Shown: piece after piece, positions 12,006 to 53,354 of the stretch
Numbering within the stretch: the stretch's first letter is position 1
Layout: the number at the start of each line of letters is the position of its first letter
DNA from: Chitinophagales bacterium
GTDB taxonomy: Bacteria; Bacteroidota; Bacteroidia; Chitinophagales; JADJOU01
Direction: 5' to 3'
Length of the DNA: 64,000 nt
NCBI GenBank assembly: GCA_016787225.1
Contig: JAEUUY010000029.1
Span: forward strand, 62,001 to 126,000
Translations under genes and position numbers: made by a program
Notes under the pieces: model-generated
The model's input: the letters and a program-made list of their open reading frames with translations, nothing else
The model's database searches: none
What the model was told of the DNA's origin: nothing

Positions 12006-12007
12006 AT

Positions 12008-12483: not shown

Positions 12484-12491
12484 TAAATTTG
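12484..12491 (+). promoter_or_regulatory. Possible -7 box for purS
   Basis: TAAATTTG fits TAnnTTTG, 23 bases before the purS ATG. A TTG lies only 12 bases upstream, too close for a -33 element. Confidence 0.32.
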
Positions 12492-12514
12492 CTACCATAA
12501 AATTAGATGAATCG

Positions 12515-13433: not shown

Positions 13434-13584
13434 TTCTTAATTCTAAATTCTTAATTTTTAATTCTTAATTTTTAATATCAAGCGTATAAATCAGAATAAT
13501 ATGATATTTTATCAATAACTTTGAATTTACTGTGACTGCAATTCTTTAACTGTGACTCTTTAACTGCGACTCTTTACTGTGACT
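13434..13584. repeat. AT-rich spacer repeats and four ACTGYGACT copies
   Basis: 13434-13480 is built from AATTCTTAA/TTTTTAATT units. The second part carries ACTGTGACT or ACTGCGACT at 13529, 13549, 13563 and 13576, spaced 20, 14 and 13 bases. These look like slippage-derived microrepeats before the SDR gene; a binding role is possible but unsupported. Confidence 0.5.
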
Positions 13585-13619
13585 CATTTATTTAAAATTA
13601 AAAATTCAAAATTAACAAA

Positions 13620-14339: not shown

Positions 14340-14388
14340 TATAGCCACCAAAACGTTTAGGTAAGTAAGTTATATTCAGAGAAGTTTC

Positions 14389-35012: not shown

Positions 35013-35753
35013 CTATAGCCCCATCTTTTTAAGAAATTCGTCTTTCTTTCTGCGACTAATCTCTACAATTGATCCGTCAATAAGTTCTACAGCGCCACCA
35101 TCTTGCTTGAGATATTTAATAATACACTTCGTATTAACTATATGTGATTGATGTATTCTGCAGAAAATCGCATAAGGTTCAAGCATAATTTCTACATCAC
35201 CCAATGTTTTGGAAATCATAATCCTCTGATGATTTTTAGTGTAGATCATAGTGTAGTTATTATCGCTTTCACATCGAATGATATCTTCGATATCTAAGAA
35301 AGTAATACCCTCTGCAGTGGGAATATAGATTTTATTATGTGCCGCAGAATGTCTACTTTTAGATTGAAAAACTTGTTGTTTTCGTTCCATCTTATTTTTT
35401 ACTTTTTCTATAGACTTGTGAAGTTTATTAATATCTACTGGCTTAAGCAAATAGTCCAGAGCATTATGTTCAATCGCTTGTATAGCATATTGATTATAGG
35501 CTGTGGTAAAAATTATATGCGATTTGAGATTTCCATTCAACCTATCGAGTAGATCAAATCCGTTCATTTTAGGCATTTCAATATCAAGGAATATGATATC
35601 TGGAGAGTGTTCTTGTAAATAGTCTAAGGCATCTTTAGCCGTATGACAAACCTTAATAACATCTACAGAGTTTTCAAACTCTTCAATTGACAGCTTCAAT
35701 GCGTTGGCGCTGTTTTTTTCATCATCTATAATAATGGCAGTTAATCTATTCAT
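35013..35753 (-). CDS. LytTR-family response regulator
   Basis: A 246-residue two-domain regulator: receiver domain (1-120) with acidic D11, D57 in DIIFLDIEMPKMNG as the phosphoacceptor, T in IIFTTAYNQ and K103 in LLKPVD; then a LytTR DNA-binding domain (about 145-246) with IYIPTAEGITFLDIEDIIRCESDNNYT and the C-terminal VEISRRKKDEFLKKM. It follows its kinase gene by two bases. LytTR proteins bind pairs of ~9-base direct repeats about one helical turn and a half apart; a candidate site lies upstream of the kinase at 38925-38953. Confidence 0.93.
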   Translation of the reverse strand: MNRLTAIIIDDEKNSANALKLSIEEFENSVDVIKVCHTAKDALDYLQEHSPDIIFLDIEMPKMNGFDLLDRLNGNLKSHIIFTTAYNQYAIQAIEHNALDYLLKPVDINKLHKSIEKVKNKMERKQQVFQSKSRHSAAHNKIYIPTAEGITFLDIEDIIRCESDNNYTMIYTKNHQRIMISKTLGDVEIMLEPYAIFCRIHQSHIVNTKCIIKYLKQDGGAVELIDGSIVEISRRKKDEFLKKMGL

Positions 35754-35755
35754 CT

Positions 35756-38700
35756 CTAATTCTTAATTTTTCCAAAATAAATCGTCACTCTTGTTCCCTG
35801 TTCAAGGTCTTCTATCTCATAATAACAATCTTTTATTTCACCTTTATTTAAAGCGTCTAGCCGATCTTTAGTAATTTTCATACCACGACTTTCATAGGTA
35901 TTTCTATTATTTTCTTTTATCTGTTTGGACGCTTTACGTCCTATTCCATCATCAGTTACCAGACAACAATATTTATTATCTTTGATTGCAAAGTTGAGTT
36001 CAAGAGTCCCTTTTCCTTCTCTATGCAGAAGTCCGTGCCATATTGCATTTTCTACAAATGGCTGTATAATCATACCAGGAATTTTCACTTCCATTGGGTT
36101 AATAGACTTTTCTACATTAATTTGATATGTAAACTGATTATCGAAACGAAGTTGTTCCAGCCGGATATAATGATGAAGCAATTCAATTTCGTCATGTATA
36201 GAAACTTTTGATTGGACAGAATTATCCAAAATATTTCGCATAAGGCTGGCAAATTGATTTAGATAATATGCAGCTTGTTTACTATCTTTTTGAAGGACAA
36301 AATTTAAAATTGAATTTAGGCTGTTAAAAATAAAATGAGGATTCATCTGTGATCTAAGAGCGCTAAGGTGCATTTCTGTCATTTCATTCTTAAGGCTTTC
36401 TTCTTTTCGAATAGCTTGAATACGATATCGATATACTTTATATATAATTAAAGAAGTTACAATAAAACATAAACTCAAAAACCACCAGGAAAAGTACCAT
36501 GGAGGATAAATACGGAAACTATAATTTAGAATTTCTGACACCTCATTACCATCTGCATCTTTTGCCTTAATTTCTAAAGTATATTTACCAGAAGGTAAAT
36601 TAGATAATGTCAATTTATTTTGATTGCCTAATTCAATCCACTTGGGCGAAGATCCTAGCAATCGATAAGAATAGGTGTTAGCTTTGGCTCCATAATAACT
36701 TAATAAACTGTATTGAAATTGAAGAGAGTTGTTCTTATATTGAAATTGATTAGGCATAGCTGATTTATGGCGAGAGAAATAGAAAACTGTATCCGCTAGC
36801 TTCAAATTTTCAAATACGAACTTTCCTTTCGTTAGATTCTTATGATTTAGGTCATTAGTATTGATGATTTGAACAAATTCACTTCCTCCTGTAAATATAT
36901 ATTGCTGGTATAACTTAGGTTTGCATAAGGAATAAATTGACCTCCAACCGGTTTCTAGTCCATACCTAACAATTGTACCATTATTTAACAAGGTGATCAA
37001 ACTGCTTCTAGCTGGTAGATAAAGGTTTTCATGGCTATCATAAATACAAGCAGTTATCTCTTCATTGAATAAGCCTGTATTTTTATTAAGTTCTTTGTGG
37101 ATAGAAAAATCAGAGTTAAATATTAATGCTATTTCTTGAAATCTATCACTCATTGCAATTTTACCGGAATTGGAAATCGTAAATTGAGAAGGATACTGAA
37201 TTTTCAAACGACCAATATTAGGAATGATATCAATTTTCTTAGTTATAATATTTATCTTATACAAGTCATTATCAAAACCTCCAAATAGAACTTCTTGATT
37301 ATTGATTCTTAATAGACCGTCAATTCGACCATAAGTATAATCAACAATGCGACTTATTGTACCTTCACGAGTATTTATTTCATAAATACCATTCTTCATT
37401 TCGCCTGTCCACGCTAAATGATCATTTATTGGTAACATATCACTTGTAAATTCAAATGAGTTAAAGTTAGGATATGATCGGGAAAAAGAAAGTTTTTTAC
37501 TACTATTAGAATGGGGATCATAGATTCCAACGTAATTCACTGAATTATTTTTACAAGTAAAGACTAGCTTTCCATTTCTCACTTGACATAGCTGACTATA
37601 CAATGTGTTAGGCGGAAATCCAATATTTATTTTGGTCCACTGATAAGTTTGTGTATTGAGTCGAAATAGTCCACCTCCGTAAATCAAGCACCAAACTGTA
37701 TGATTCAAGTCAAATTGATAGTCTGGAACAGCAGCTATTACAACATTTCCTTCAACTCCAGTGAATTTTTCTGAAGTATAGTAACGCTTAAATTTTTGAT
37801 TTGATTTATAAATAATATCTAGACCCTTAAAGATAGTCCCTACCCATATATTTCCATCTCTATCTCGAAAAATAGTTCGACAGAAATTATCACTTAGACC
37901 TTCGGGTTTATTCAGTTGATTAATCGTTTGGTACTTGCGAGTCTTCAAATTATACTGAATAATACCCTCGTTGCTGGTAGAGAGCCATAGCTGAAGGTTT
38001 CCGCTTTTATCCTTCTCTTCAGCGACACCTCGAATGCCTAAATTATAAAGTGCATACGCTCTTGTCTTTTGAAAATATTCATGATAGTGCTTTCCAGAAA
38101 CTGGATCTATCAGTATCATCCCATAGGCATATCCACCCAGTAAGACTGTACCATCGGAAAGAGTCCTAGCCATTCTCAAGGGTACATTTTTCTTTTTGTC
38201 AAGCACAAAATTATACGAAGTTAATTTCTTCGTTTGTGGATTAAAACTAAAGTATCCATTGCCCTCCGTAACTAGCCATATTATTCCATTCTTATCTTCG
38301 GTGAGGTCTCTAATTTCAATATCAGGAATTATGACACTATCTATTTTTGTAATTTGACTAATACTATCAAGTTTCAATTTAAGTAATGATCCAATGGATG
38401 GTATCCAGATTGTATTAGATTTAGAGATTAAAATACTATTGAAAAAAAACCTATCCTTTATAGCTTTAGGAGCAAAGAATCTATTCGTAGTTCGATCAAA
38501 CTTTAATAATTTGTTTTCTGTTACAACCCAGAGTTCCCGATTCTTGTCTTCCTTGATATCCATGATACCAGATAGTGGAATTTCTTTGCTATGGTCGACG
38601 AGAAACACTTCTATATCTTTTCCATTATACTTATTGATTCCCCGCTCTGTCCCTATCCACATAAATCCTAAATGATCTTGGAATATACATTTGATATATG

Positions 38701-38824
38701 GGTCAGACAATCCATCCTCGATACCTAAATGCGAAAAATTATATGTATTTAGATCCTGCGAGAACACCCAATGAGGGAATAAAAGGAAACAGAATAAATG
38801 AATAATATAAAATCGCCTTAACAT
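35756..38824 (-). CDS. Propeller/Y_Y_Y sensor histidine kinase
   Basis: At 1022 residues it has a signal sequence, two reg_prop-type beta-propellers (repeats such as FMWIGTERGINKYNG, IWVGTIFKGLDIIYK and ELWVVTENKLLKF), a Y_Y_Y domain (about 690-775, ending YSFRIYPPWY), one TM (about 780-800), and a LytS-type kinase core with H830 in QMNPHFIFNSLNS and an ATP-binding IIQPFVENAIWHG...DDGIGRKAS. The periplasmic propeller senses an unknown ligand (in polysaccharide-utilisation systems, oligosaccharides). With the adjacent LytTR regulator it forms a complete pathway. It is transcribed away from the TANFOR-like operon. Confidence 0.92.
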   Translation of the reverse strand: MLRRFYIIHLFCFLLFPHWVFSQDLNTYNFSHLGIEDGLSDPYIKCIFQDHLGFMWIGTERGINKYNGKDIEVFLVDHSKEIPLSGIMDIKEDKNRELWVVTENKLLKFDRTTNRFFAPKAIKDRFFFNSILISKSNTIWIPSIGSLLKLKLDSISQITKIDSVIIPDIEIRDLTEDKNGIIWLVTEGNGYFSFNPQTKKLTSYNFVLDKKKNVPLRMARTLSDGTVLLGGYAYGMILIDPVSGKHYHEYFQKTRAYALYNLGIRGVAEEKDKSGNLQLWLSTSNEGIIQYNLKTRKYQTINQLNKPEGLSDNFCRTIFRDRDGNIWVGTIFKGLDIIYKSNQKFKRYYTSEKFTGVEGNVVIAAVPDYQFDLNHTVWCLIYGGGLFRLNTQTYQWTKINIGFPPNTLYSQLCQVRNGKLVFTCKNNSVNYVGIYDPHSNSSKKLSFSRSYPNFNSFEFTSDMLPINDHLAWTGEMKNGIYEINTREGTISRIVDYTYGRIDGLLRINNQEVLFGGFDNDLYKINIITKKIDIIPNIGRLKIQYPSQFTISNSGKIAMSDRFQEIALIFNSDFSIHKELNKNTGLFNEEITACIYDSHENLYLPARSSLITLLNNGTIVRYGLETGWRSIYSLCKPKLYQQYIFTGGSEFVQIINTNDLNHKNLTKGKFVFENLKLADTVFYFSRHKSAMPNQFQYKNNSLQFQYSLLSYYGAKANTYSYRLLGSSPKWIELGNQNKLTLSNLPSGKYTLEIKAKDADGNEVSEILNYSFRIYPPWYFSWWFLSLCFIVTSLIIYKVYRYRIQAIRKEESLKNEMTEMHLSALRSQMNPHFIFNSLNSILNFVLQKDSKQAAYYLNQFASLMRNILDNSVQSKVSIHDEIELLHHYIRLEQLRFDNQFTYQINVEKSINPMEVKIPGMIIQPFVENAIWHGLLHREGKGTLELNFAIKDNKYCCLVTDDGIGRKASKQIKENNRNTYESRGMKITKDRLDALNKGEIKDCYYEIEDLEQGTRVTIYFGKIKN

Positions 38825-39148
38825 AAAACTTTAAGAAGTCATAAAAGTAAGGTGATTTAAGTAATAAATTAATACTTGAATTAGAATTCGGTTATTCTTA
38901 TTGAGAATATGGACATTGACCAATTACTCATTCATTTATACCGAATACTCATTTGAAGTTGTTTTAGCGATTACTAACCATAATTTTGTCATGAATCTTG
39001 AAAGGTTGTAATTGATTCAGTTTACATAAACTTAATCGAAATGAAATGTGATTATTTAGAATTAAACACCAATTTAAGTTAGAATTTATAGACGAACAAT
39101 TAAATTATAAAAACGAATAGGGATTTTAATAGTATAGAACTAATCATT
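38825..39148. promoter_or_regulatory. Divergent intergenic region with LytTR-site-like direct repeats
   Basis: Between the kinase gene and the 39149 operon, TACTCATT occurs at 38925-38932 and again at 38946-38953, a 21-base period that fits LytTR binding sites. A 15-base palindrome ATTCT-TATTG-AGAAT lies at 38894-38908. No clear TAnnTTTG box was found in either direction. Confidence 0.35.
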
Positions 39149-40897
39149 ATGAATAGACTAGTACACCAAACAATATTTTATATTACTTTTTTCTTAGGGA
39201 AAAGTCTTATAAGTCAAGAATTATCAACAATAACCAAGCAACAACCCTTTGACATTAAAGGTTCTATTTCATTAACAGGCAATGGTTATATAGCTGATGG
39301 GATTCCCAACCGGTTTAGTCCTTTAGGTTGGATGATATCAGGGACACCTACAATAAGCTTGTATGGTGTTCAAATTCCTTTTTCAATAATGATATCCGAA
39401 CAAAACAAGGACTTTTCTCAACCATTTGCTAGGTTTGGATTAAGTCCTACCTATAAATCACTTAAGCTTCACCTCGGTCATAGATATATGACATTCAATC
39501 CATATACTCTCAGTGGGAGAAATTTTTTAGGAGCAGGAATAGAGTGGAATCCAAAGATCTTTCGTTTCGCTGCTATGTATGGATCGTTTAGTTCTGAAAA
39601 CTTAGACGACACAGCGGCATTATATAATTCTAGTTCAATTAATAAACCTAACACTATTAAACCCACATACAGACAAATGGGGTATGGTCTTAAACTAGGT
39701 GCAGGCTCTAAATCTCAGCATGCAGAAATTATGATGTTTAGAGGATATGACGTATATGAAGGAAGAAATATAGATTTCAATAGAGCTATTATTAAACCTA
39801 GAGATAATATTGCAATAGGTGCGAATACCCATTTTACTTTTGCAAAAATGATTACATGGGATATTAAGGTGGGGGCATCGGTTTTTACTCGAGATGTGAC
39901 TCGTGATTCACTGGTACTAAAATCTTCAGATAGTAGTCTATTAAGATCAATTAATTCCTTTTTTCCCATAAGGACATCTACCCAATTATCATGGGCTGGA
40001 GAGACTTCCATTAATTTTAATTATAAAAACATTGGTTGCGGACTGACATATAAGAGAATTATGCCAGAATACAAATCACTGGGAATCTTTTATATTCAGG
40101 GTGACTTAGAACAATATTTTATAGCTCCTTCTGCAGTCGTATGGAAGAATAAATTATCCTTATCTGGAAATCTAGGAATCCAACGAGATAATTTAGCGGG
40201 TATCAAAGAATCTACAAACAATTCTATCATGGGGGCAATTAATGTAGGATTTCAGGCGAATGACAAATTTGGCATAGACGCTAGTTATTCTAATTTTGGA
40301 ATAACGCAAAGACCTACCATTTTCGGTGGCATACCTGATACTACTTTAATTGATCAGATAAATCACAATGCCACACTTACTCCACGTTATACCTGGATTG
40401 ATGACAAAAAAGTAATAAATCTTATATTAAGTCTTAACTATCAACAATTGGTGGACTTAAATCGAACGACAGAAGTATTTACAAATTCAAGAAACTTTAC
40501 TGGTGTAGCAACCCATACATTAAATCTATTGCAGAAAAAAATGGACTTTACTACATCGTTTACTTATAATAATACGCACTCAGTAATTGATATCGTGAAT
40601 TTAGGTTTATCCTATTCTATGAACAAATTACTAGCGAAAGACAAGCTAAGAATTGGAGGAGGGATTTCTTATTTTACAAATATCTATGAAGGTCAAAAAG
40701 CAGGAGATACATATTCTGGCAATATATCTACAAATTATACCATTGATGCCATGCATAGTTTACAAGCTGGATATTCAATTTTGATTAATAATGGACAATT
40801 TAGTGGAGTTATTAACTCATTTAGCGAACATAGATTTAATGTAGGATACGTATTTAATTTTTCAGGAATCAAATTAAACAGTCAAAAGAGTAAATAA
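39149..40897 (+). CDS. Predicted outer-membrane beta-barrel protein, first gene of operon
   Basis: At 582 residues, an N-terminal hydrophobic segment (1-22, ending SLISQ) looks like a signal peptide. The rest is a series of amphipathic strands with glycines and aromatics (SISLTGNGYI, LHLGHRYMTFNPYTLSGRNFLGAGIEW, IGCGLTYKRIMPEYK) and ends ...HRFNVGYVFNFSGIKLNSQKSK. It has no carboxypeptidase-regulatory or plug domain, so a plain barrel is likelier than a TonB receptor. Exact family not recognised. The 309-aa gene follows six bases later; it could be the outer-membrane anchor or exit for the large proteins encoded downstream. Confidence 0.7.
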   Translation: MNRLVHQTIFYITFFLGKSLISQELSTITKQQPFDIKGSISLTGNGYIADGIPNRFSPLGWMISGTPTISLYGVQIPFSIMISEQNKDFSQPFARFGLSPTYKSLKLHLGHRYMTFNPYTLSGRNFLGAGIEWNPKIFRFAAMYGSFSSENLDDTAALYNSSSINKPNTIKPTYRQMGYGLKLGAGSKSQHAEIMMFRGYDVYEGRNIDFNRAIIKPRDNIAIGANTHFTFAKMITWDIKVGASVFTRDVTRDSLVLKSSDSSLLRSINSFFPIRTSTQLSWAGETSINFNYKNIGCGLTYKRIMPEYKSLGIFYIQGDLEQYFIAPSAVVWKNKLSLSGNLGIQRDNLAGIKESTNNSIMGAINVGFQANDKFGIDASYSNFGITQRPTIFGGIPDTTLIDQINHNATLTPRYTWIDDKKVINLILSLNYQQLVDLNRTTEVFTNSRNFTGVATHTLNLLQKKMDFTTSFTYNNTHSVIDIVNLGLSYSMNKLLAKDKLRIGGGISYFTNIYEGQKAGDTYSGNISTNYTIDAMHSLQAGYSILINNGQFSGVINSFSEHRFNVGYVFNFSGIKLNSQKSK

Positions 40898-40903
40898 AAA
40901 ATT

Positions 40904-41833
40904 ATGAAGAAGAGTATAGTCTTGATTATTGTATTATTTCATTGGTTGCTATCGAGTTCTCAGAATGAGGTTTCTATTGTATTAAATGCACCTCCGCCCT
41001 ATAGTCCATATATTGATGAGTTGGTCAATTTTCAAGGAGCTAGTTTGATTTGCATTAACACAAGAAATGTAGTCAAGCAAATTTATTTTCGACTTGAACT
41101 GACAGGTCCTAATGGATTCTCAGCAACTACTAAATCAAGCTTTAGACCTAGTGGTGATCAAATTATAAATTTAGGACCGAATGAAACCAAAGTTCGATTG
41201 AGCAATTATGTTAGAGATCAATTTTCCGCTCGCATTCTGGATATAAGCAATCCAGATAATGATGCTATTGCCTTAGGATTAATTCCAGAGGGTTTGTATA
41301 AACTTTGTTTTCAAGCTTTCGATGTCAATACAGAGCAACCAGTCTCGCTAAAGACTTGTAGGGATTTTAGAATTACCTATACCAATACTCCAACTTTAAT
41401 ATATCCACCTTGTTTCAGTAATGCAGAAGTTCGCTCTTTTCATTTGACATTTACTTGGACACCTGTAGCGGTGAACCAAGCTGGGGTGAGTCTAGCCTAT
41501 GATCTATATATTTCTGAAGTTCGTGATGAAATGACACAAGAAGATATGATGCAACAGATATTAGATAAAAATTTGGGAAACCCTTATATCCTCATAGAGA
41601 ATATTCCGACTAACTCCTATCTCTACATGAATAATATTCCGAGTATTATACTTCAAAAAGATAAAAAATATGCATGGATGGTAGTGGCCAAGGATCGAAA
41701 CAATAAAGTGGCATTTACTAATAATGGAAGATCCAATCTTTGCTCATTTACCTACAAGTATAATCAAAATCCAGTTGAGATAAAACTAAATGTAGCATCA
41801 GATAGCACTGCTATAAAATTAAACACTAAATAA
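40904..41833 (+). CDS. Stand-alone TANFOR-like module
   Basis: The 309-residue exported protein has a signal peptide (1-19, ending SSSQ) and a single module with APPPYSPYIDELVNFQGASLICINTRN, FRLELTGPNGFSATT, IALGLIPEGLYKLCFQAFDVNTEQPV and TFTWTPVAVNQAG. The overall pattern resembles what is annotated as the TANFOR domain. It is co-linear and clearly paralogous with the first ~290 residues of the next gene. Four cysteines may form disulphides. The spacing (six bases before, nine after) implies one operon. Role unknown. Confidence 0.65.
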   Translation: MKKSIVLIIVLFHWLLSSSQNEVSIVLNAPPPYSPYIDELVNFQGASLICINTRNVVKQIYFRLELTGPNGFSATTKSSFRPSGDQIINLGPNETKVRLSNYVRDQFSARILDISNPDNDAIALGLIPEGLYKLCFQAFDVNTEQPVSLKTCRDFRITYTNTPTLIYPPCFSNAEVRSFHLTFTWTPVAVNQAGVSLAYDLYISEVRDEMTQEDMMQQILDKNLGNPYILIENIPTNSYLYMNNIPSIILQKDKKYAWMVVAKDRNNKVAFTNNGRSNLCSFTYKYNQNPVEIKLNVASDSTAIKLNTK

Positions 41834-41842
41834 TCCCTTGAT

Positions 41843-44800
41843 ATGAGACAAGCATTGTTCTTAATTTTATTATCCACATTAGCAGTAAAACTCTATTCTC
41901 AGAATGATGTCACCCTTATACTTAACCTTGCTCCACCTTATAAGCCATACATAGATGAAATGGTGAATTTTGATGGTGCGACACTAACTTGTATCAATAA
42001 GAAAAATTCAACCCAAGAGATTTATTTCAAAATAGAGGTTACTAGTTCAAATGGATTTTCAGCAACAACGAAATCAGGCTATAAACCTTCGAGTAATCAG
42101 GTTGTCACACTCAATTCTCTGGAGACGAAAGTGCTCATGAAAAGTTTTTTGAAAGACAATTTTTCTACAAAAATTCTTGATATCAGCAATGCAGATGCAG
42201 ACGCTATTGCCCTTGGATTGATACCAGAGGGAATGTATAAAATTTGCATACAAGCTTTTAATTTCAATACTGATGAGCCTGTCTCCACGAAAGTGTGCAA
42301 AGACATCAAAATAAACTATAATAACACTCCTACACTTACTAGTCCTTCCTGTTTAGGCAATACAGAGGTTAAATCTATCCTCATCAATTTCAATTGGTCA
42401 CCTATCCCCGCTACTGTAGCAGGTGCTAACATTGTATATGACTTGTATATCATAGAGGTTCAAGAAGGGATGAATGCTCAAGATGCTATGAATGAAGCTA
42501 TTGAAAACAATGTAGGTAATCTAATCAAAAAAGAGAATTTAACAGCTCCGTCGCACACCTATATTAATATGACCAATCCAGATAATCCAAATTTGATGTT
42601 AATGAAGAATGGAAAGACATATGCCTGGATGGTGGTCGTGCGAGAATTGAATAAAAAAATGGTCTTTACAAATCAAGGGAAGTCTAACATCTGTAGCTTT
42701 GTTTATACGAACACTTCTAATGGACCAGTGCCAACATCCCAATCACTTCCTCCAGTGAATAACTCTAATGGAATCAATTGTTCTTGTCTTTCTCCAAAAG
42801 CAACTGGACCAGTGATGAAAAACTATACATTGAATAGTGGAGATAAATTCTTTATGGGTGATTTCGAGTTTACTATTATTGAAATGATAAAACAAGCAGG
42901 GTCAGAAGGAGTCATTGAGGGACGTGCTAAGGTCAATTTGCCTGTCATCAATTCGGGATATATACCTGTAAGATTGAATTTTAAAGATGTGACCCTTAAT
43001 GATGATTTTAAAGCACTTTCGGGAACAGCTAGAGCACTTGTCAATAGCTCAGCATCTTTTATTCCTAAGTCTGATGACCCTAAAGTTCCGAGTCTACCTT
43101 TGACTCCGCAAATGGCTAAGGATATGGGTGGATTCTTTTCTAATGCAAAAGATCAAATCGTACAAGCAGGTAAAGATTGGAAGAATTCTATAGGGCTGGA
43201 GATGCCAATAGGAATTGAAAATAATATAGGTGGCAAATCAATCATCATAGCAATTACGGACCTTAGTTTCGAGGTAGATAGAGCCTACTTCAATGCCATG
43301 ACAGGCATTGATATGCCGGACGGAAATCCTGATGTCGTAGCACTAGGAGCTAAGAACATGTGCATAAGTCCGAGCAAACCCTGTGGAGAAGGAGTATTAT
43401 ATTTAGCAGAGGACCTCAATGTAAAACTAGGTAGTCAAACAATTCGATTAAAGTCTCTGAAAAGTTCTCCAAGTGATACGGGTACCTATGTAATATTCAA
43501 TCAAGATGGATTTCAGTGGTTTAGAGTTCACGCAGAGTATGAACCTGGTTCTGATAAAATAGTGCAACGAGATGGAAGTCCTCTCAAGATAGGAATGGCA
43601 TTTACTACTAAGGAATGGAGCAATTGGATAGCAGAAATAAGTTTATCAAATTTTAAAATTAAAGGAATCGATGATTATGTATTTCTTGATGCCAAAGGCT
43701 ATTATGATCATTCAGAAGTTCAGAATCCTAATTCGCCTTTTCCTTCGTTTTATATTAATAATGAACCAATAGCAGCAAGTCCTCTATGGAAGGGATTTTT
43801 CTTAAATCAACTCAAACTAGAGATGCCTCCAATTTTCAAGAAAAAAGGCAATAAAGAACCATTTGTTGTTGGAATTCAAAATTTTATCTATGATGATCAG
43901 GGTGTAACTGGAGAAGCTATCGCTCAAAATATATTCAAGCTTGGCGATGCAGAGTTGAAAGACTGGGCATATAGTTTAGATGAAATTAAAATTTCCTTTT
44001 TGAAGAATGCATTTCATTCAGGTAATCTTAGCGGTCGAGTGGCACTTCCCATTACAGATGATGCTGAGAAAAATCAACTTGTCTATAACTGTCTAGTCAA
44101 TTATAACAACAGTAAATTTTTATATAATTTCGCTGTTACACCTAAAAATGATATTGACATCCCAGTATTCATAGCAAAACTTGATATTGACAAATCTTCT
44201 AATATCACCATCTCAAACAATAATCCTGAAAATGCTTTTGAAGCATCTGCTGAACTTAATGCAAAGCTAGGTATAGTAGCTAATTTGGGACCGATAAAGA
44301 ATGTAAAGTTAGCGGGCATACAAGTGCAAGGTTTGAAGGTAAGTAGTACCGCACCCTATTTTACACCAGGGCAAATTATTATGGCAACAGCGAGTCCTGA
44401 TAAATCTATTTCCGGATTTCCGCTATCACTCTCAAAATTGTCTTTGATTGAAGGACCTGGACTTCGTGTCGGTGGAAAAATGAGTTTAGGAGATAATACA
44501 GACAAAGGAATCTCTGGAGAATTAGTGATGGATATTCTGGGAAAAATAAACGGTAAAAAACTAGCCTTTGATAAAACTAAGATAAATGAGATAGCCATTA
44601 AGGGTGAATTGTCAGTACTGAAGGTAGATGGCAAGATCAAATGGTATGACAGCGACCCAATCTATGGAAGTGGTTTTGTAGGAGGTATTAAATGTTTTTT
44701 CCCATCCATTAGTTCTGGTATTGACTCGAGAATTCAGTTTGGTAGTGTCAATGATTATAAGTATTGGTATGTTGATGCATTAGCAAAAATATCGCCACCT

Positions 44801-47800
44801 ATACCTGCTTTCCCAGGTACAGCAATACATGGATTTGGAGGAGGCGCTTACCACCATATGTCTCAATCTACTTTCCAGCCCACAAGTATAGCTGGTTTTA
44901 GCACAAAGAATGACAATACTTCTATAGGCACTTCTAATTCAGGTGTGGTTTATAAGCCAGATATAAACGTAGGATTGGGTTTAAAGGGCACGATGATAGT
45001 AGGACTTACAGCTAAACAAATTTTCAATGCAGATGTGACTTTAGAAGCTAATTTTGAAAAAGATGGAGGCTTGAATCAAATAAGTCTCAATGGAAATGGA
45101 CGCTTTCTATCCAATAATGAAATGACAGAAGGAGTAGCCACAGCTAGTATTAATGTGATTTACTCAGTACCTAATAAGGTATTTGATTTAAAAGCAAATT
45201 TGGAATTGAAAAAAGATCCTTTTTTAGTAACAGGTGATTTTGGAATTTATACTCAAATGCAGGGTGAAGAGACAAAATGGAATGTAATTTTCGGTAGACC
45301 AAAACAATTTGGTTCACCATTGACAGCTGAGATAGCAGGATTTGAAGCGCTCAAGGCTTACTTCCAGGCTGGAAATTTTAAAGTAGACCCTATGCCTCCT
45401 ATTCCAGATTGGATTTCCAAGGCTCTAAACGGATTTGAATCAAATAGACAAGGCTATAATTCAAATAATAAAACAAATCCATCTATAATATTTGGTGCTT
45501 CCACAGGCTTTAGTTATGGTGGGAAATTTTTAATTTTCAAAGGTAGTTTAAAGGCAGAGGCTGGCTTTGATTTTATGTTGAAAAAATATGATAAAGATTG
45601 TAATAATAAACCACTAGGTCCTAGCACAACATTCGGCCTAAATGGCTGGTATGCCAATGGTCAAGTTTGGGCCGGCATACACGGTGATCTTAGTGTCTAT
45701 GTAGATCTATGGGTGGTATCTGGAGAATATAAAATACTAGATATCACGGCAGCTGCGGCTCTGAAAGCAGGTGCTCCTAATCCAGTATGGTTGAAAGGTG
45801 CTGTGGGAGGTTCATATAGTATTTTGGATGGTTTGATAGAAGGAAATGCTAATTATCAGTTTTCTTTAGGTTCTGAGTGCACACCATCATTGCCTATAGA
45901 AGATCCTCTAGACGGTATCACTTTACTCTCAGACATTTCTCCACAGCCAAATGAGAATGTAGATAAACCAGATGCCTATACTAAAGAAATCCAAGAAATC
46001 ACAACAGTTCCATCGTTCTCTACGAATTTAAAAATGAAAAACTCAGAATTTCAAATTCGAGATAACCAAAATAAACTCTATGTTTTTCGATTTAATTCTA
46101 ATTGTATCAATCCAAGTATAACTGGAAATAATTTACCACAAGACTTTAAACTGATTCAAGATAAGAACAACTATGGGGGAGCATACTATTCGAATGAACT
46201 TCTGCCTTCACATACAGATATCAAGTTTACGCTCAAAGCATATCTAGAGTCCTGTAGTGATATCATAACTACCGTTGATGTAAATGGCAAACAGATTTAT
46301 ACAGGTTGCAAAAAGTGGGAAAAAGCTAAAAGACAGAAAGATGGCTCTATCTTCGAAGAGACCAAATCTGTAAGCTTTAAGACAGGTGCAGGTTTGGATT
46401 CGATCAAGGAAGAAAATATAGCCTTTAATATGCCATATGCTGGCCTTAAATACGCGACCATCGACAATTATGAAGCTAGTAAAATGGCTGTCGGTGGCAA
46501 ACTAAAATTATCCAATTTCGAGGCACCAGAAGGTTATGAAAATCAAGCGCCTGCTCGACTCAAAATGAGATATATTCCTATGATGAGTGCAAAAAATACT
46601 TCCAATAAATCTGTGGAAGAATTCATGACGAATTTAGAGTATGATGATAAGCGAAATATCACAATATGTGGTTCTGCACATCCTAGTTTTAGTAAAAATT
46701 TAGGACAGGATATCACTTGCCAACTCATAGCAGAGTGGGGTGCAGAAAATGATAACTCTGATTTTATGAAGGGAGCAAGTTCATTTACGAAGTTCAAAAC
46801 GACTAATGTACTAAATAGTAGATTCAATACAGCCAATGTCAATACAACAGAAGTGAATGAATCTAAACTGAAGGTAGCGAAAAATCAGCGAATTCTATAT
46901 TCATGGTCATATAGAACTAGTCAGTATTATAAGAGTATACAGGATAAAATGAATATGATGAAGCAGCAAGAAGGCGCTTATGCGAGAATACCAGCATTGC
47001 CAAAATATGAAGACAAGGTGGAAATTTGTTGTCAAGTATCGAGTGCTGATTTAGCCGGACCAGATCAAAATCTTCTTCAAAAAGTGAAAACAAAGTGCGA
47101 AAAGGATAAAAACTGGTATACCTATCTTGCCTATCTGCAGTATAATGGTATCGAGGCTTTTAATCCTACCGATGTCGAAGGATATTTTAAAAAGTATTCA
47201 CTTATTAAAACTCAATCCAGTAATAGTTCGAGCACAACCTATGATCCATTGGTGAGTCTCAATGACCAAGCCATCCAGAATTCCTATGCAGGGTGGAACA
47301 ATGAGATCGAAGATATAGCTAAGAAATATGGTGTAGAATTAAATCAAGCAGTCTATGGCATAAAAATTCCTGGAGCGAGATACTGGGTGAGCACAAAGTA
47401 TTTAGGTTTAGGCTCTGGAAATTTTAACTCAAACAATTTCAGTAGCAATATAAATTACTCATTATCGCCTAATCAAAATTATCATAATCAGAATTATAAT
47501 TTCAATAATTCTAGTCTGGAAATCTATAACATCTCTAAAGGCCAAAGTCAAAGAAATGTACTTTTCTACATAAGAGAATTTATACAAGCGAAGGAGAAAT
47601 CAGAAGGGGTTCAGACCATTGGAAATCAGAAACTAGGTCAAATATGGATAAAAACAAAATGGTTAGGAAGACCTGGACCTGATCAGTTTGAAAATGCTAT
47701 AGGATTCTTAAGCGAAATTCAAAACAGAACAAAAAAGGGAATAGATCAAGGAACTACGCCATCTGCAAAAGACCTTACAATAAAATATGAAGATGTATCG

Positions 47801-47866
47801 GTACAAAATTTTCAAGTAGAGTTAGGTGGATCAAAGAATAAAATGAATAAGACTTTTGGATTTTAA
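41843..47866 (+). CDS. Giant exported protein with N-terminal TANFOR-like module
   Basis: The protein has 2007 residues: signal peptide (1-19, ending LYSQ), TANFOR-like module (about 20-290), a Cys-Ser-Cys segment near 313-316 (NCSCLSP), then a long, mostly beta-predicted region with repeated beta-strand/turn stretches (FKDVTLNDDFKALSGTA, IKGIDDYVFLDAKGYYDH, GKMSLGDNTDKGISGEL) and a C-terminal part with many N/S-rich linkers, ending NKMNKTFGF. No T9SS sorting domain or transmembrane barrel pattern is obvious. It is probably a large envelope or surface scaffold. Homologues of this sort occur in Bacteroidetes operons next to fibronectin-III proteins, but I cannot name a function. Confidence 0.65.
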   Translation: MRQALFLILLSTLAVKLYSQNDVTLILNLAPPYKPYIDEMVNFDGATLTCINKKNSTQEIYFKIEVTSSNGFSATTKSGYKPSSNQVVTLNSLETKVLMKSFLKDNFSTKILDISNADADAIALGLIPEGMYKICIQAFNFNTDEPVSTKVCKDIKINYNNTPTLTSPSCLGNTEVKSILINFNWSPIPATVAGANIVYDLYIIEVQEGMNAQDAMNEAIENNVGNLIKKENLTAPSHTYINMTNPDNPNLMLMKNGKTYAWMVVVRELNKKMVFTNQGKSNICSFVYTNTSNGPVPTSQSLPPVNNSNGINCSCLSPKATGPVMKNYTLNSGDKFFMGDFEFTIIEMIKQAGSEGVIEGRAKVNLPVINSGYIPVRLNFKDVTLNDDFKALSGTARALVNSSASFIPKSDDPKVPSLPLTPQMAKDMGGFFSNAKDQIVQAGKDWKNSIGLEMPIGIENNIGGKSIIIAITDLSFEVDRAYFNAMTGIDMPDGNPDVVALGAKNMCISPSKPCGEGVLYLAEDLNVKLGSQTIRLKSLKSSPSDTGTYVIFNQDGFQWFRVHAEYEPGSDKIVQRDGSPLKIGMAFTTKEWSNWIAEISLSNFKIKGIDDYVFLDAKGYYDHSEVQNPNSPFPSFYINNEPIAASPLWKGFFLNQLKLEMPPIFKKKGNKEPFVVGIQNFIYDDQGVTGEAIAQNIFKLGDAELKDWAYSLDEIKISFLKNAFHSGNLSGRVALPITDDAEKNQLVYNCLVNYNNSKFLYNFAVTPKNDIDIPVFIAKLDIDKSSNITISNNNPENAFEASAELNAKLGIVANLGPIKNVKLAGIQVQGLKVSSTAPYFTPGQIIMATASPDKSISGFPLSLSKLSLIEGPGLRVGGKMSLGDNTDKGISGELVMDILGKINGKKLAFDKTKINEIAIKGELSVLKVDGKIKWYDSDPIYGSGFVGGIKCFFPSISSGIDSRIQFGSVNDYKYWYVDALAKISPPIPAFPGTAIHGFGGGAYHHMSQSTFQPTSIAGFSTKNDNTSIGTSNSGVVYKPDINVGLGLKGTMIVGLTAKQIFNADVTLEANFEKDGGLNQISLNGNGRFLSNNEMTEGVATASINVIYSVPNKVFDLKANLELKKDPFLVTGDFGIYTQMQGEETKWNVIFGRPKQFGSPLTAEIAGFEALKAYFQAGNFKVDPMPPIPDWISKALNGFESNRQGYNSNNKTNPSIIFGASTGFSYGGKFLIFKGSLKAEAGFDFMLKKYDKDCNNKPLGPSTTFGLNGWYANGQVWAGIHGDLSVYVDLWVVSGEYKILDITAAAALKAGAPNPVWLKGAVGGSYSILDGLIEGNANYQFSLGSECTPSLPIEDPLDGITLLSDISPQPNENVDKPDAYTKEIQEITTVPSFSTNLKMKNSEFQIRDNQNKLYVFRFNSNCINPSITGNNLPQDFKLIQDKNNYGGAYYSNELLPSHTDIKFTLKAYLESCSDIITTVDVNGKQIYTGCKKWEKAKRQKDGSIFEETKSVSFKTGAGLDSIKEENIAFNMPYAGLKYATIDNYEASKMAVGGKLKLSNFEAPEGYENQAPARLKMRYIPMMSAKNTSNKSVEEFMTNLEYDDKRNITICGSAHPSFSKNLGQDITCQLIAEWGAENDNSDFMKGASSFTKFKTTNVLNSRFNTANVNTTEVNESKLKVAKNQRILYSWSYRTSQYYKSIQDKMNMMKQQEGAYARIPALPKYEDKVEICCQVSSADLAGPDQNLLQKVKTKCEKDKNWYTYLAYLQYNGIEAFNPTDVEGYFKKYSLIKTQSSNSSSTTYDPLVSLNDQAIQNSYAGWNNEIEDIAKKYGVELNQAVYGIKIPGARYWVSTKYLGLGSGNFNSNNFSSNINYSLSPNQNYHNQNYNFNNSSLEIYNISKGQSQRNVLFYIREFIQAKEKSEGVQTIGNQKLGQIWIKTKWLGRPGPDQFENAIGFLSEIQNRTKKGIDQGTTPSAKDLTIKYEDVSVQNFQVELGGSKNKMNKTFGF

Positions 47867-47882
47867 GCAAAAAATAAAAGAC

Positions 47883-49934
47883 ATGAAGAGAATAATAACA
47901 CTCATATGCATTGCTCATTTTATAAATACAGCAATTAGTCAGGAGCTCAAAACCCATGTTCGAATGATAGGCCTATCCACTTCTGAAGGGATAATGCTAA
48001 GATGGGGATTCGATAATTATACAATGTGGGAACTCGCCATGACAAGAGGATTCATACTTGAGAGAATACAAGTGGATCGCGTAACACATAAACCGATAAA
48101 TCCTACTTTTACAAAAGTAACCTCAAACCCTATCATACATTGGTCAGAAGATAAATGGAGAAATTCTGTCACAGCCAAAGATACCTATGACATGATCGCA
48201 GCGCAAATGGTATTTGGTAAAACGGTTAAATTTGGAGAGAATAACTTTGGTAGAGGTACTGTAGCTCAGCTCAATAATGCTGATGACGAGATTAAAAACC
48301 GACATGGATTCGCACACTATGCTGCGGAAATGAATTTCAAGACAGCTTTAAAACTTGGGCTAGGTTATTTAGATACAGATATCAAACCTGAATCGAGATA
48401 TATTTATCGGATTTACCTCAACGGTGAGCAAGGTCTATATTCCAGCGATACGACTATACTTGTAGTAGATGAAGATATTAAATATCAAGCATTTAGCGGA
48501 CCTATACCTTCTGTAGAACAAGGAGATCGAAAAGTAAGACTTCATTGGAAAAGTGAAGGATATACAGCCTTTTATATAGAGCGCAGTCAAGATGGATCTA
48601 ATTTCACTCGACTTAATTCCCGACCACATATATCCTTGTATGAACCAAGTATTGAAGACAAAACCATTATTACCTATATAGATTCTCTTCATGAAAATGA
48701 AAAGGTATTCTATTATCGAATTATAGGCATTAACTCTTTTGGACTTTTATCTAGACCAGGCCAGGCTATCAAGGCAATGGGGATAGACAGAACCGCACCC
48801 GAAGCAGCAGATATAATTTCTGGAGAGAATAGTGGTGCCAGCTCTAATATTCTTAAATGGAAAATAAATGCAAGCAAAGACCTTAAAGGATTTCAGGTTT
48901 TAAGATCTCATTATGTTGATAAAGATTATGAAGCCATTTCGGATATACTTCCTTCTAGTTCTAGAGAATATACAGATAGTAAAGCAGAAGCAAGTCAGGC
49001 AAATTTCTATAAAGTAATGGCTATAGATCAGAACGATAATATCTCTATGAGCACACCTAGGTATATTTTAATGAAAGATGTGAAAGCACCAGATAAAGTG
49101 GTGGGTCTTAAGGCTAGTATATCGAAAGAGGGTGTAGTTAGTTTGTCATGGAATCTAGGAACTGAGATGGACATCAAAGGGTATAACATTTTCAGATCGA
49201 ACAGTAGGGAGCATCAAATGATTCCGATAAATGATAATATATTAGAAGATACAAGCTTTATCGATACTATTCAGATTTCAGACTTAAATGAAAAAGTATT
49301 TTACACAGTTCAAGCCATAGATAAGACTTATAAGGTAGGTGAAATGAGTGAAATATTAGAACTTAAAAAACCTGATGTCATCAAACCTGTTGCACCACAT
49401 TTCTCATTCTACCAAGTCAATAAAGATAATATAATACTTTCATGGGATGAATCTCCCTCTAAAGATAGAAAGCAGTATACACTCTGGAGAAAATCAGAAG
49501 ATAAAGCTAGTTATATAAAAATCAAGGATTTCGAACTAGATAGTACACAATACATAGATCGGGATGTAGAAGCATTAAAGTATTATACCTACGTCATGAC
49601 CTGTACCGATGACGATGGATTGATTTCAGAGTATTCACCAGAATTAGTTTTGAGAGTATTTAATTCTGGAACGGAAAAATCAATTACTAATTTAAATGTG
49701 AGGAGAGACGAAAAAGCAAATGCAATTTTAAGTTGGAGCTATGATTTAAAACCAGAATATTATATTGTTTACAGGAAATCAGGTAATAATCCATTGACAA
49801 TGTATAAACAATCAATGGAAACTATATTTGTAGATGACTATGCTGCATCAAAAGAAGTTTACTTCTATTCTGTTCAGGCAATTTTTTCCAATGGAAATAA
49901 ATCAGCCTTATCAGATCCCATTGAGTTAAGGTAA
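47883..49934 (+). CDS. Fibronectin-III-like repeat protein
   Basis: Taken from the ATG at 47883 (an upstream in-frame TTG at 47856 overlaps the previous gene and adds nine residues), 683 residues. Signal peptide (1-19, ending AISQ), a ~180-residue N-terminal domain beginning LKTHVRMIGLSTSEGIMLRWGFDN, then at least five Fn3-like repeats with the YxxYR/VxxIDxxxN pattern (KVFYYRIIGINSFG, ANFYKVMAIDQNDN, KVFYTVQAIDKTYK, KYYTYVMTCTDDDG, VYFYSVQAIFSNGN). It is the last gene of the operon, 16 bases after the giant gene. Fn3 repeats suggest protein- or glycan-binding at the surface. Confidence 0.72.
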   Translation: MKRIITLICIAHFINTAISQELKTHVRMIGLSTSEGIMLRWGFDNYTMWELAMTRGFILERIQVDRVTHKPINPTFTKVTSNPIIHWSEDKWRNSVTAKDTYDMIAAQMVFGKTVKFGENNFGRGTVAQLNNADDEIKNRHGFAHYAAEMNFKTALKLGLGYLDTDIKPESRYIYRIYLNGEQGLYSSDTTILVVDEDIKYQAFSGPIPSVEQGDRKVRLHWKSEGYTAFYIERSQDGSNFTRLNSRPHISLYEPSIEDKTIITYIDSLHENEKVFYYRIIGINSFGLLSRPGQAIKAMGIDRTAPEAADIISGENSGASSNILKWKINASKDLKGFQVLRSHYVDKDYEAISDILPSSSREYTDSKAEASQANFYKVMAIDQNDNISMSTPRYILMKDVKAPDKVVGLKASISKEGVVSLSWNLGTEMDIKGYNIFRSNSREHQMIPINDNILEDTSFIDTIQISDLNEKVFYTVQAIDKTYKVGEMSEILELKKPDVIKPVAPHFSFYQVNKDNIILSWDESPSKDRKQYTLWRKSEDKASYIKIKDFELDSTQYIDRDVEALKYYTYVMTCTDDDGLISEYSPELVLRVFNSGTEKSITNLNVRRDEKANAILSWSYDLKPEYYIVYRKSGNNPLTMYKQSMETIFVDDYAASKEVYFYSVQAIFSNGNKSALSDPIELR

Positions 49935-50960: not shown

Positions 50961-53354
50961 TTATTTTTTGATTCTATCAAATTCGGTTTGATTAATTTTT
51001 TGACTTTTATAACAAAATGCAGTCTTATTCGTATAAGTATAATTTAGCGTAAGGCGAATATAACTCGTGGTAGATCTTTGATTATATTCATTCGAAAATG
51101 TATTGACATTGAATTTACCTGCCCATAAAGCAGTTTGGGCAAAGTCATTCCAAAGCAAACTGACAGATAAAGCATCTTCCTTGAAAAAAGTTTTAGATAA
51201 ACCTAAACTGAAATAATAATATGGTTTCCGTTCCGTAAAGCCATCGAAGCTTCTGCCATAAAATTCACCAGTAAATTCAACCGTAAACCAATTAGGAATT
51301 TTATAGGAGTGATAAGTATATGCATAAAATTGAGGACTATTCGATAGGGCGGTATATATAGGTCTCGAATCATTAAATTGATTGAAATTGAGCGCCAATG
51401 TATGATAGCTCGAATATTTATTCAAATCAAAGGGAATCTCCAAGGCTAGACTATGTCGATGTCGTTTTTCAATATTATCTTTGGTAAAAATAACTGCATT
51501 GTCTCCACTACTGCCTTGTTTCATTACCGGTGTTATTACACTCCTAGCTAGAGAATAGCTATATCGCAAGACAAATCTATCATGTATACAACGAAGTTCT
51601 GACTGATGTATATATTCTGGTCTCAAATTAGAATTACCTTGAATGCTGGTCAAGCTATCTAAATACCATAAAAATGGATCAAGATCTTGATAAATCGGTC
51701 GGTTGATTTTATAAGCATAACTCGCTGCGAGTTTGAAATTTCTGTTCAACTTAAAATTAAACTTAAGGCTGGGGAAAAAATTATGATAACTCGTATCAAT
51801 AATTTTCTGATTAAATTTATTCGAGAATCCTTGGGCATAGGTATATTCCCAGCGCAGCCCAAAACTGTATTGCACGCCATTCCATGTACTCTTATAGTTA
51901 GCATAGAGTGCAGCTACATCCTCCCGATAGGTCGTAGAATTTGCTAACAATGTATTTTCGATATAATCTCTCTCAGATTCAGACTTTGTAAAAAATTGAA
52001 TTCGCCCATCATTTCTACTGCGCATCATCTTACCCCCGAAATCTAAATTGTATTTTGATTTTTTTAGGCTAAAATCCAACTGTCCAGTATGGAGGTAGAT
52101 TTGATTGAAACCATCATTTATTCTATTATAGCTGAAAGCATTTATTGGATTGGATATGTTTTCTGTTATATTGTCCAATAGTCCATTTTGAAAACTACTA
52201 TATTGAATCCCTGCAAACATATTGCTTCCAAGGCTATCAAGTTTATGAAAGAAATTTAAATTGCCAGAATGATTTTGCAGTCTAGTGCTAGCACTATTCA
52301 CCATATTTATTTTTACTAGATTATTAAATGGGTCTATGTAGTCTCCGTTTTGTTTTACATCGAGATAGAACAAATGGGATAAGCCATCATATTCGGCTGT
52401 TAATTGAGATTGTGAATTTAGTTTATAACTAACTCCTGCTCGATAATTGTGAATACTATTATTTTTATTGTCTTCAGTATAATAACCATACTTCTTATAG
52501 TATCCTAGTGGTGTATTGGTGGAAGTTATAAACTTATTTTCTGACCAATTTTGACCATACTCATTGCCATAATATGATTCAAATTCCCATTTGTTTTTTC
52601 TCAACTTAAAACCTATATTGGGAGCATTTATGATATACTTACCTAGGTATGCTTCAGGAACTATCCCTAAGGTTGTATTATTCGTGATATTCAAGTTATA
52701 GCCCTGAAAAAGATAATTTTTTAACTGAATTAAGATGACAGCTTTACCCTTGGCATCATATCGTACATCTGGATTCGTTATAATTTCTATACTTTTAATA
52801 TCATTTACTGGTAGAGACTTTATGCTTTCAATACTAATAACTTGGCTATTCATTATGACTAGAGCCTCTCCCCTACCAAATACATTTAGTTTACCAGAAA
52901 CTACTGATACTGATGGAATTTTTGTCAGTAATTCCATTGCGCTGGTGCTTCTGCTCAATATACTATTATCGACATTTACTTTTGTACCATCAGTAGTTTT
53001 TTCAAACAAAGGTTTTCGTGACTTGATTTGAACTTCTTTTAATCGTTTATTCAATGCATTTAAGAATATCACTTTCTTATCCTTATTTAACTCTAAACTA
53101 TCCAAAAGAATTATTCTTGATTCAAAACCTTGAGCTGTGAGCGTTAATTTTAAAGGCAATGAAGCAGTTAAATTAAGACGAATATTGCCATCTTCAAAAA
53201 TTCCACCTTCAATATAATTCTCACTGGTATCCATCAAAATATAATTACCACTTAAGGTTATTCCATCATAATTAACTACTTTAGCCAAATAATTACTATT
53301 CTGTGATTGTAAACTAAATACTATAATTACAAAAATAAATGCAATTTTCTTCAT
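50961..53354 (-). CDS. TonB-dependent receptor-like outer-membrane barrel protein
   Basis: The protein has 797 residues. Signal peptide (1-18), a short beta-sandwich (about 20-100, LTLTAQGFESRIILLDSLEL), a plug-like domain (about 110-215, FEKTTDGTKVNVDNSILSRSTSAMELLTKIPSVSVVSGKLNVFGRGEALVIMN, then SIEIITNPDVRYDAKGKAVI) and an OMP_b-brl_3-type barrel to the end. It resembles the receptor at 32594-34999. It shares a transcript with the downstream AraC/DJ-1 gene (six-base gap). Ligand unknown. Confidence 0.85.
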   Translation of the reverse strand: MKKIAFIFVIIVFSLQSQNSNYLAKVVNYDGITLSGNYILMDTSENYIEGGIFEDGNIRLNLTASLPLKLTLTAQGFESRIILLDSLELNKDKKVIFLNALNKRLKEVQIKSRKPLFEKTTDGTKVNVDNSILSRSTSAMELLTKIPSVSVVSGKLNVFGRGEALVIMNSQVISIESIKSLPVNDIKSIEIITNPDVRYDAKGKAVILIQLKNYLFQGYNLNITNNTTLGIVPEAYLGKYIINAPNIGFKLRKNKWEFESYYGNEYGQNWSENKFITSTNTPLGYYKKYGYYTEDNKNNSIHNYRAGVSYKLNSQSQLTAEYDGLSHLFYLDVKQNGDYIDPFNNLVKINMVNSASTRLQNHSGNLNFFHKLDSLGSNMFAGIQYSSFQNGLLDNITENISNPINAFSYNRINDGFNQIYLHTGQLDFSLKKSKYNLDFGGKMMRSRNDGRIQFFTKSESERDYIENTLLANSTTYREDVAALYANYKSTWNGVQYSFGLRWEYTYAQGFSNKFNQKIIDTSYHNFFPSLKFNFKLNRNFKLAASYAYKINRPIYQDLDPFLWYLDSLTSIQGNSNLRPEYIHQSELRCIHDRFVLRYSYSLARSVITPVMKQGSSGDNAVIFTKDNIEKRHRHSLALEIPFDLNKYSSYHTLALNFNQFNDSRPIYTALSNSPQFYAYTYHSYKIPNWFTVEFTGEFYGRSFDGFTERKPYYYFSLGLSKTFFKEDALSVSLLWNDFAQTALWAGKFNVNTFSNEYNQRSTTSYIRLTLNYTYTNKTAFCYKSQKINQTEFDRIKK

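What the first reader, a model, noticed from the sequence alone, without database searches (positions are those of the whole stretch)
39149..49934. Four-gene envelope operon with duplicated TANFOR-like module
A barrel protein, a free TANFOR-like module, a 2007-residue protein starting with a paralogue of that module, and an Fn3 repeat protein are spaced 6-16 bases apart. The free module could compete with or cap the giant protein. The set looks like an undescribed surface structure or secretion-linked assembly, divergent from a propeller kinase/LytTR pair.
Basis: partly seen in the sequence, partly recalled or inferred. Interest (0 to 1): 0.6.

Follow-up and report, generated by a model that had tools for sequence, protein, structure and literature searches.

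The report
TANFOR proteins and their partner barrel
This four-gene operon is one copy of a widespread bacterial cell-surface cassette in which a very wide outer-membrane barrel is tied to proteins carrying the TANFOR module, pointing to the unknown doorway or anchor by which TANFOR proteins, some of them toxins, reach the cell surface.

Summary
In detail: four ORFs (582, 309, 2007, 683 aa) spaced 6, 9 and 16 bases apart, with 50.5% identity between the free 309-aa module and the giant's first 291 residues. They belong to a recurrent cassette. Among 80 loci chosen only by a barrel motif, 72 have a TANFOR gene directly downstream and 54 read barrel-TANFOR-Fn3. In 296 Bacteroidota genomes all 69 with a strong TANFOR profile hit carry the barrel. 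The independent TIGR02542 model hits 8 genomes, and all 8 have it. In six genomes a TANFOR module and the barrel are one polypeptide. The barrel models as 24-26 strands (pLDDT 88) and is closest in fold to MtrB, with ushers and AlgE behind it. It has no Pfam or NCBIfam family, and the 2020 paper that named TANFOR proteins polymorphic toxins does not mention a barrel. No toxin domain was found in the window's giant or in 84 other giant C-termini. One related locus has a TANFOR-AHH nuclease with an Imm11-like neighbour. Most likely the barrel docks TANFOR modules and anchors or exports their owners. The free module is probably an extra docking or plug subunit; this last step is inference. Whether export needs T9SS remains open.

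The parts
35013..35753 (-). LytTR response regulator, 246 aa, divergent from the cassette
   Evidence: Pfam Response_reg 3e-24, LytTR 2.7e-15
35756..38824 (-). Propeller (Reg_prop/Y_Y_Y) histidine kinase, 1022 aa, divergent from the cassette
   Evidence: Pfam Reg_prop 2.2e-19, Y_Y_Y 9.2e-15, His_kinase 3e-22
38959..38988 (+). Candidate Bacteroidota promoter TTG-N19-TAATTTTG for the operon
   Evidence: only match in the 324-base gap on this strand; 14 matches on both strands of the window; consensus match only
39149..40897 (+). Gene A: 582-aa outer-membrane beta-barrel of about 24-26 strands, TANFOR-partner family without Pfam or NCBIfam name
   Evidence: AlphaFold2 pLDDT 88.1, pTM 0.79; PDB best 6r2q_B MtrB Z 19.8; 211 relatives by one motif
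40904..41833 (+). Gene B: 309-aa stand-alone TANFOR-like module with signal peptide
   Evidence: 50.5% identical to C 1-291; profile E 8.6e-77 (member of the profile's own alignment)
41843..42733 (+). Gene C residues 1-297: TANFOR-like module with signal peptide
   Evidence: profile E 6.7e-73 (member of the profile's own alignment)
42734..46477 (+). Gene C residues 298-1545: conserved all-beta body, occurring as a separate protein in G031 and G044
   Evidence: L036 and L040 carry the body without a TANFOR module
46478..47866 (+). Gene C residues 1546-2007: C-terminal region, no toxin or T9SS signal found; similar to the tail of L120 only
   Evidence: blastp 1.5e-6 to L120; Pfam none
47883..49934 (+). 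Gene D: 683-aa Fn3-repeat protein
   Evidence: PF00041 5.6e-7; homologues next to A and TANFOR genes

Best explanation
The operon encodes a dedicated barrel-TANFOR surface apparatus. Gene A makes a very wide outer-membrane barrel. The TANFOR module, about 300 residues with an Fn3-like second half, is an N-terminal docking tag that binds this barrel at its periplasmic mouth or inside its lumen. The 2007-aa protein C is the cargo, held at or passed through the barrel by its tag. D is a Fn3 stalk or scaffold of the same complex. B is a second, free docking module, most likely a plug or adaptor of the barrel, made by a local duplication of C's first domain and kept under selection. A divergent kinase/LytTR pair probably controls the operon. 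Shown here: the parts, their conservation, genome-level co-occurrence, gene linkage and gene fusions. Inferred: physical docking, topology, cargo display, B's role and the regulation.
For: (1) Of 80 loci selected by a barrel motif alone, 72 have a TANFOR gene directly downstream on the same strand, mostly with gaps under 51 bases, and 54 read A-TANFOR-Fn3 contiguously. (2) In 296 Bacteroidota genomes, strong TANFOR hits in 69 and all 69 have the barrel (Fisher p 5e-62); 85 of 107 TANFOR copies lie within 12 kb of a barrel gene on the same strand. (3) The independent TIGR02542 model hits 8 of the 296 genomes and all 8 have the barrel; three of the fetched loci are contiguous or adjacent, three more are within about 12 kb. 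(4) Six genomes encode TANFOR module plus barrel as one protein (871-1016 aa), and in four of these loci a separate TANFOR-body or body protein and an Fn3 gene are also present, the same parts list as the window. (5) Barrel followed by a TANFOR-only protein recurs in L066, L057 and L184. (6) Within loci TANFOR modules are often homogenised: window 50.5% against 31%, L163 98% against 52%, L190 78% against 39%, as expected of tags for one receptor. (7) The predicted barrel is large enough to hold folded domains: best fold match MtrB, a 26-strand barrel that sheathes another protein.
Against: No interaction or localisation data. The sensitive TANFOR profile was built from barrel-linked modules, so the 69 of 69 figure is partly ascertained; the independent TIGR02542 test is small (8 of 8). 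The TANFOR modules of the fused proteins are closer to one another than to their neighbouring giants' modules, so B, whose closest relative is C's own module, is not simply the split-off half of such a fusion. In L066 the free module is not closest to its neighbour. Some barrels stand without TANFOR neighbours (L064, L069, L070, L078, L076, L136). The cassette is absent from the five other genomes held of the family, so it is accessory.
Confidence: 0.6

Rival explanations
1. Export is done by the type IX secretion system, and the barrel acts only after or beside it as a cognate shuttle or surface anchor, as SprF/PorP does for SprB-type substrates.
For: The genome has SprA (2114.7 bits) and 80 Por_Secre_tail matches. 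SprA occurs in 229 of 296 genomes and, read from the lists, in all 69 strong TANFOR genomes (hypergeometric p 1.2e-9; confounded by phylogeny). The 2020 paper proposed T9SS export from neighbourhoods and co-occurrence (PMC7073777). Type B substrates need cognate PorP/SprF barrels (PMC12618676) and bind them on the surface (PMC9143113).
Against: No type A or type B sorting domain: none in C or D of the window, none in 84 other giant C-termini by Pfam, none in 43 Fn3-protein C-termini by NCBIfam. A and its relatives do not match the PorP/SprF model in NCBIfam. The tag is N-terminal.
Confidence: 0.35
2. The barrel is itself the protein-conducting pore, a two-partner or usher-like secretion system for TANFOR-tagged proteins that works without T9SS.
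For: Strict pairing, adjacency and fusions; predicted 24-26 strands, with FimD/PapC ushers and AlgE among the fold matches; all parts carry Sec signals but none carries a T9SS sorting domain.
Against: All strong TANFOR genomes also have SprA. No POTRA, chaperone or known plug domain was found. Fold similarity among large barrels shows no function.
Confidence: 0.3
3. C is a polymorphic toxin and the operon is a competition locus.
For: TANFOR proteins as a class carry C-terminal toxins (PMC7073777). In relative G044 a TANFOR protein in the cassette ends in an AHH nuclease (PF14412 8.8e-12) with an Imm11-like gene next to it. In L163 two TANFOR proteins share a 98% identical module and differ behind it.
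Against: No toxin domain in the window's C-terminus nor in 84 other giant C-termini. C is followed directly by D, with no small immunity-like gene. In body-type giants the C-terminal regions are mostly homologous to one another rather than variable.
Confidence: 0.08
4. B is a decoy or a truncated leftover of the duplication without a positive role.
For: Stand-alone modules beside the barrel are rare: 2 among 95 complete TANFOR genes in the first survey, apart from a broken pair in L124, plus L184 and the window.
Against: Intact reading frame and signal peptide, the residues invariant across the family kept, dN/dS well below 1, tight spacing in the operon, and recurrence in unrelated loci, in two of which (L057, L184) no TANFOR giant follows the free module.
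Confidence: 0.2

Closest known systems
TANFOR polymorphic toxins of Bacteroidetes (TIGR02542; Jana, Salomon and Bosis 2020, PMC7073777)
   Same: N-terminal TANFOR-type module behind a Sec signal on a large protein; Fn3 genes in the neighbourhood; genome with T9SS.
   Different: No toxin or immunity part here; a dedicated barrel partner, not mentioned in that paper; a free module; direct model score far below the curated cut-off.
SprF/PorP-type barrels with type B T9SS substrates (PMC9143113, PMC12618676)
   Same: A substrate gene paired with its own outer-membrane barrel gene.
   Different: A does not match that family and models as a much larger barrel (the comparison of size rests on general knowledge of PorP/SprF); the TANFOR tag is N-terminal, not a C-terminal sorting domain.
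MtrB of the Mtr electron conduit (6r2q_B, PMC7198977)
   Same: Closest fold in the PDB: Z 19.8, rmsd 5.4, 465 residues aligned; a 26-strand barrel sheathing a partner protein.
   Different: 9% identity, no CxxCH motif in A-D, no cytochrome partner.
FimD/PapC chaperone-usher barrels
   Same: Similar barrel size; Z about 15.
   Different: No chaperone or pilin genes, no usher domain match in Pfam.

Membership tests
TANFOR domain proteins (TIGR02542) | score above the curated cut-off of 67 bits | tested here: not met
   B 13.3 bits, C none; but 35 of 42 aligned homologous modules match the model, best 6.7e-19, and another set reached 1.1e-24: homologous, outside the curated limit
TANFOR polymorphic toxins | module at the N-terminus behind a Sec signal of a large protein | tested here: met
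   C residues 1-297; the signal peptide was judged by eye, no predictor was run
TANFOR polymorphic toxins | C-terminal toxin domain or toxin gene downstream, with immunity gene if antibacterial | tested here: not met
   Pfam none on C; D follows directly
T9SS type A or type B substrates | C-terminal sorting domain (TIGR04183 or TIGR04131) | tested here: not met
PorP/SprF-like barrels | match to the PorP/SprF family model in NCBIfam | tested here: not met
   no such match for A or for any of 73 family members
MtrB/PioB porin-cytochrome conduits | multihaem cytochrome partner | tested here: not met
   0 CxxCH in A-D
MtrB/PioB porin-cytochrome conduits | barrel fold of this size | tested here: met
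   Z 19.8 to 6r2q_B on the predicted model; a shared fold, not a function
Chaperone-usher pili | usher domain match and chaperone/pilin genes | tested here: not met
   no Pfam match in A; neighbours are B, C, D and regulators
TANFOR-partner barrel cassette (defined here) | barrel A homologue next to a TANFOR gene and an Fn3 gene on one strand | tested here: met

The most novel reading that the evidence does not exclude
The barrel and TANFOR module form an undescribed outer-membrane secretion and anchoring system of Bacteroidota, in which an N-terminal address module, on the cargo, free, or fused to the barrel, targets giant surface proteins and some toxins to their own 24-26-strand pore, independently of T9SS sorting domains.
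Probability: 0.3. Interest if true: 0.85.

Novelty: new variant of a known kind. Interest (0 to 1): 0.62.

Why it matters
How TANFOR proteins, including known antibacterial nucleases, leave the cell has been an open question since 2020. A barrel family that always accompanies them in the genomes tested, and is sometimes fused to their module, gives a concrete gene to delete and a concrete interface to test. It was probably missed because the earlier neighbourhood analysis counted only annotated domains and this barrel matches none.

Tried and rejected
Anti-phage defence: no PADLOC match for the four proteins. Toxin reading of C: no domain in Pfam or NCBIfam. Electron conduit, suggested by the MtrB fold match: no CxxCH. 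Structure of C's body: model only pLDDT 74, pTM 0.41; matches diffuse (LptD, ApoB100, porins; TM about 0.12), so nothing is claimed beyond a long-stranded beta protein. Sequence search of PDB with the barrel profile: nothing; with the TANFOR profile: only weak Fn3/titin-like matches to its second half. Search of viral structures: only generic porins. The first 19-member barrel alignment had no stretch conserved enough to search with. Foreign base composition: cassette G+C 35.1% against window 34.8%. A second phylum search from another centre only repeated genomes already seen.

Full report
OBSERVATION. The window (G000:C29:62001-126000, a 2.96 Mb Bacteroidota genome) holds four + strand ORFs at 39149-49934 with gaps of 6, 9 and 16 bases. 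I call them A (582 aa), B (309 aa), C (2007 aa) and D (683 aa, ATG at 47883). All start with what looks like a Sec signal peptide. A propeller kinase (1022 aa) and a LytTR regulator (246 aa) lie divergently across a 324-base gap that carries one Bacteroidota-type promoter match pointing at A. The finding is therefore confirmed as described.

WHAT THE PARTS ARE. A, B and C have no Pfam family; D has Fn3. Directly, B scores only 13.3 bits to TIGR02542 and C scores nothing. Among 42 homologous modules aligned together (these two included), 35 match TIGR02542, so B and C residues 1-297 are divergent relatives of the TANFOR domain. B and C's module are each other's nearest relatives (50.5% over 291 residues; next 31%), with dN 0.37 and dS 1.98 by LWL85: a duplication within this lineage, kept under constraint. 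A was modelled from a 73-sequence alignment at pLDDT 88.1, pTM 0.79, as a barrel of about 24-26 strands counted from the strand list. Its best fold match stands apart from the rest: MtrB, Z 19.8 over 465 residues, then AlgE 15.8 and ushers about 15. MtrB is a 26-strand barrel that sheathes another protein (PMC7198977). C's body modelled poorly (pLDDT 74, pTM 0.41).

CONSERVATION. C has relatives in 23 of 119 genomes of its order (the count includes its own genome). Looking around them, barrel, TANFOR giant and Fn3 genes sit side by side. I then searched 84,980 species genomes with a motif of the barrel alone: 211 relatives, 80 loci kept, from Chitinophagales, Saprospiraceae, Bacteroidales, Flavobacteriales, Pedobacter, Spirosoma, Ignavibacteria and Chlorobiota. 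In 72 of the 80 the next gene on the same strand is a TANFOR gene, mostly within 51 bases; 54 read A-TANFOR-Fn3 contiguously; 61 have both within three genes. The order A-N-D dominates, with N-D-A next. In the window's own family the cassette is absent from the five other genomes held: an accessory element, without unusual base composition.

THE REVERSE TEST. In 296 Bacteroidota genomes, the sensitive TANFOR profile gives strong hits in 69 genomes, and all 69 have the barrel (Fisher p 5e-62); 85 of 107 TANFOR copies are within 12 kb of a barrel gene on the same strand. That profile came from barrel-linked modules, which biases it. The independent TIGR02542 model hits 8 of the genomes; all 8 have the barrel. 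Of these, G355, G393 and G357 are contiguous or adjacent, G308, G389 and G304 have the two within about 12 kb (the G304 barrel is cut short), and G314 and G353 are unlinked in the pieces seen.

FUSIONS. In six genomes (G302, G372, G342, G283, G250, G322) one protein of 871-1016 aa is a TANFOR module followed by barrel A. In L188, L192 and L193 the same locus also has a TANFOR-body giant, and L188, L191, L192 and L193 have an Fn3 gene. The barrel can thus own a TANFOR module besides the giant's, as in the window where B is free. Because the ends of outer-membrane barrels usually lie in the periplasm, the fused module should sit at the periplasmic mouth or in the lumen; this is inference from general knowledge. 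TANFOR-only proteins next to a barrel also occur in L066, L057 and L184; in L057 and L184 no TANFOR giant follows, but an OmpA-like protein and a T9SS-type protein respectively. The fused modules form their own lineage, so B is an analogue, not a direct descendant, of that arrangement.

CARGO. None of 84 other cassette giants has a Pfam toxin in its last 300 residues, and body-type tails are mostly homologous to one another. In G044 the parts are rearranged as barrel, body without TANFOR, Fn3, then a TANFOR protein ending in an AHH nuclease with an Imm11-like gene. So the same apparatus parts occur with a toxin cargo, and the body may belong to the apparatus rather than to the cargo. Within loci, TANFOR modules are often homogenised (98% in L163, 78% in L190, 50.5% here; not in L066).

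EXPORT ROUTE. The genome has SprA and 80 T9SS sorting tails, none in the cassette. Across the phylum SprA is in 229 of 296 genomes and in all 69 strong TANFOR genomes (lists; p), which fits the T9SS hypothesis of PMC7073777 but is confounded by phylogeny. Neither the giants nor 43 Fn3 proteins carry the known sorting domains. T9SS with a cognate barrel anchor, as for SprB and SprF (PMC9143113, PMC12618676), and an own-pore system both remain open.

REGULATION. Kinase or LytTR homologues occupy 28 of 288 gene slots one to four genes upstream of the barrel against 4 of 469 elsewhere; the exact pair directly upstream occurs in five loci. The loci are not independent, many being Pedobacter.

WHAT IS NEW. 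TANFOR proteins are known. In the library searched, only one paper uses the name, and it does not mention a barrel; its neighbourhood method counted annotated domains only. The barrel family, its consistent pairing with TANFOR, the fusions and the free module appear undescribed there; most subscription-journal papers were not searchable.

Noticed in passing
L149:768-7996 (with L040): TANFOR protein of 2198 aa ending in an AHH nuclease, followed by an Imm11-like gene, behind a barrel-body-Fn3 cassette in G044.
   Followed up: partly
L163:5827-8898 and 10973-16105: Two TANFOR proteins in one locus share a 98% identical module but have different lengths and C-termini; the nearby barrel is a 336-aa fragment.
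   Followed up: partly
L172-L176, L181, L182: Distant barrel relatives of 745-918 aa in other families of the phylum, with a leading region of about 230 residues that looks like two Ig-like domains and no Pfam name.
   Followed up: partly
L164:14197-16653: Flavobacterium-type barrels of about 818-829 aa carry an unknown extension of about 250 residues behind the barrel.
   Followed up: no
L064, L069, L070, L078: Saprospiraceae-type loci with the barrel but no TANFOR or Fn3 neighbour; in L064 and L069 proteins with T9SS-like tails stand in front of it.
   Followed up: partly
L057:7197-9816: Barrel followed by a TANFOR-only protein and an OmpA-like peptidoglycan-binding protein, a possible cell-wall anchor.
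   Followed up: partly
32594-34999 and 50961-53354: Two similar-looking TonB-receptor-like outer-membrane proteins (801 and 797 aa) flank the region on opposite strands.
   Followed up: no
23293-27222: A 1309-aa protein on the - strand with a strong T9SS sorting domain.
   Followed up: no
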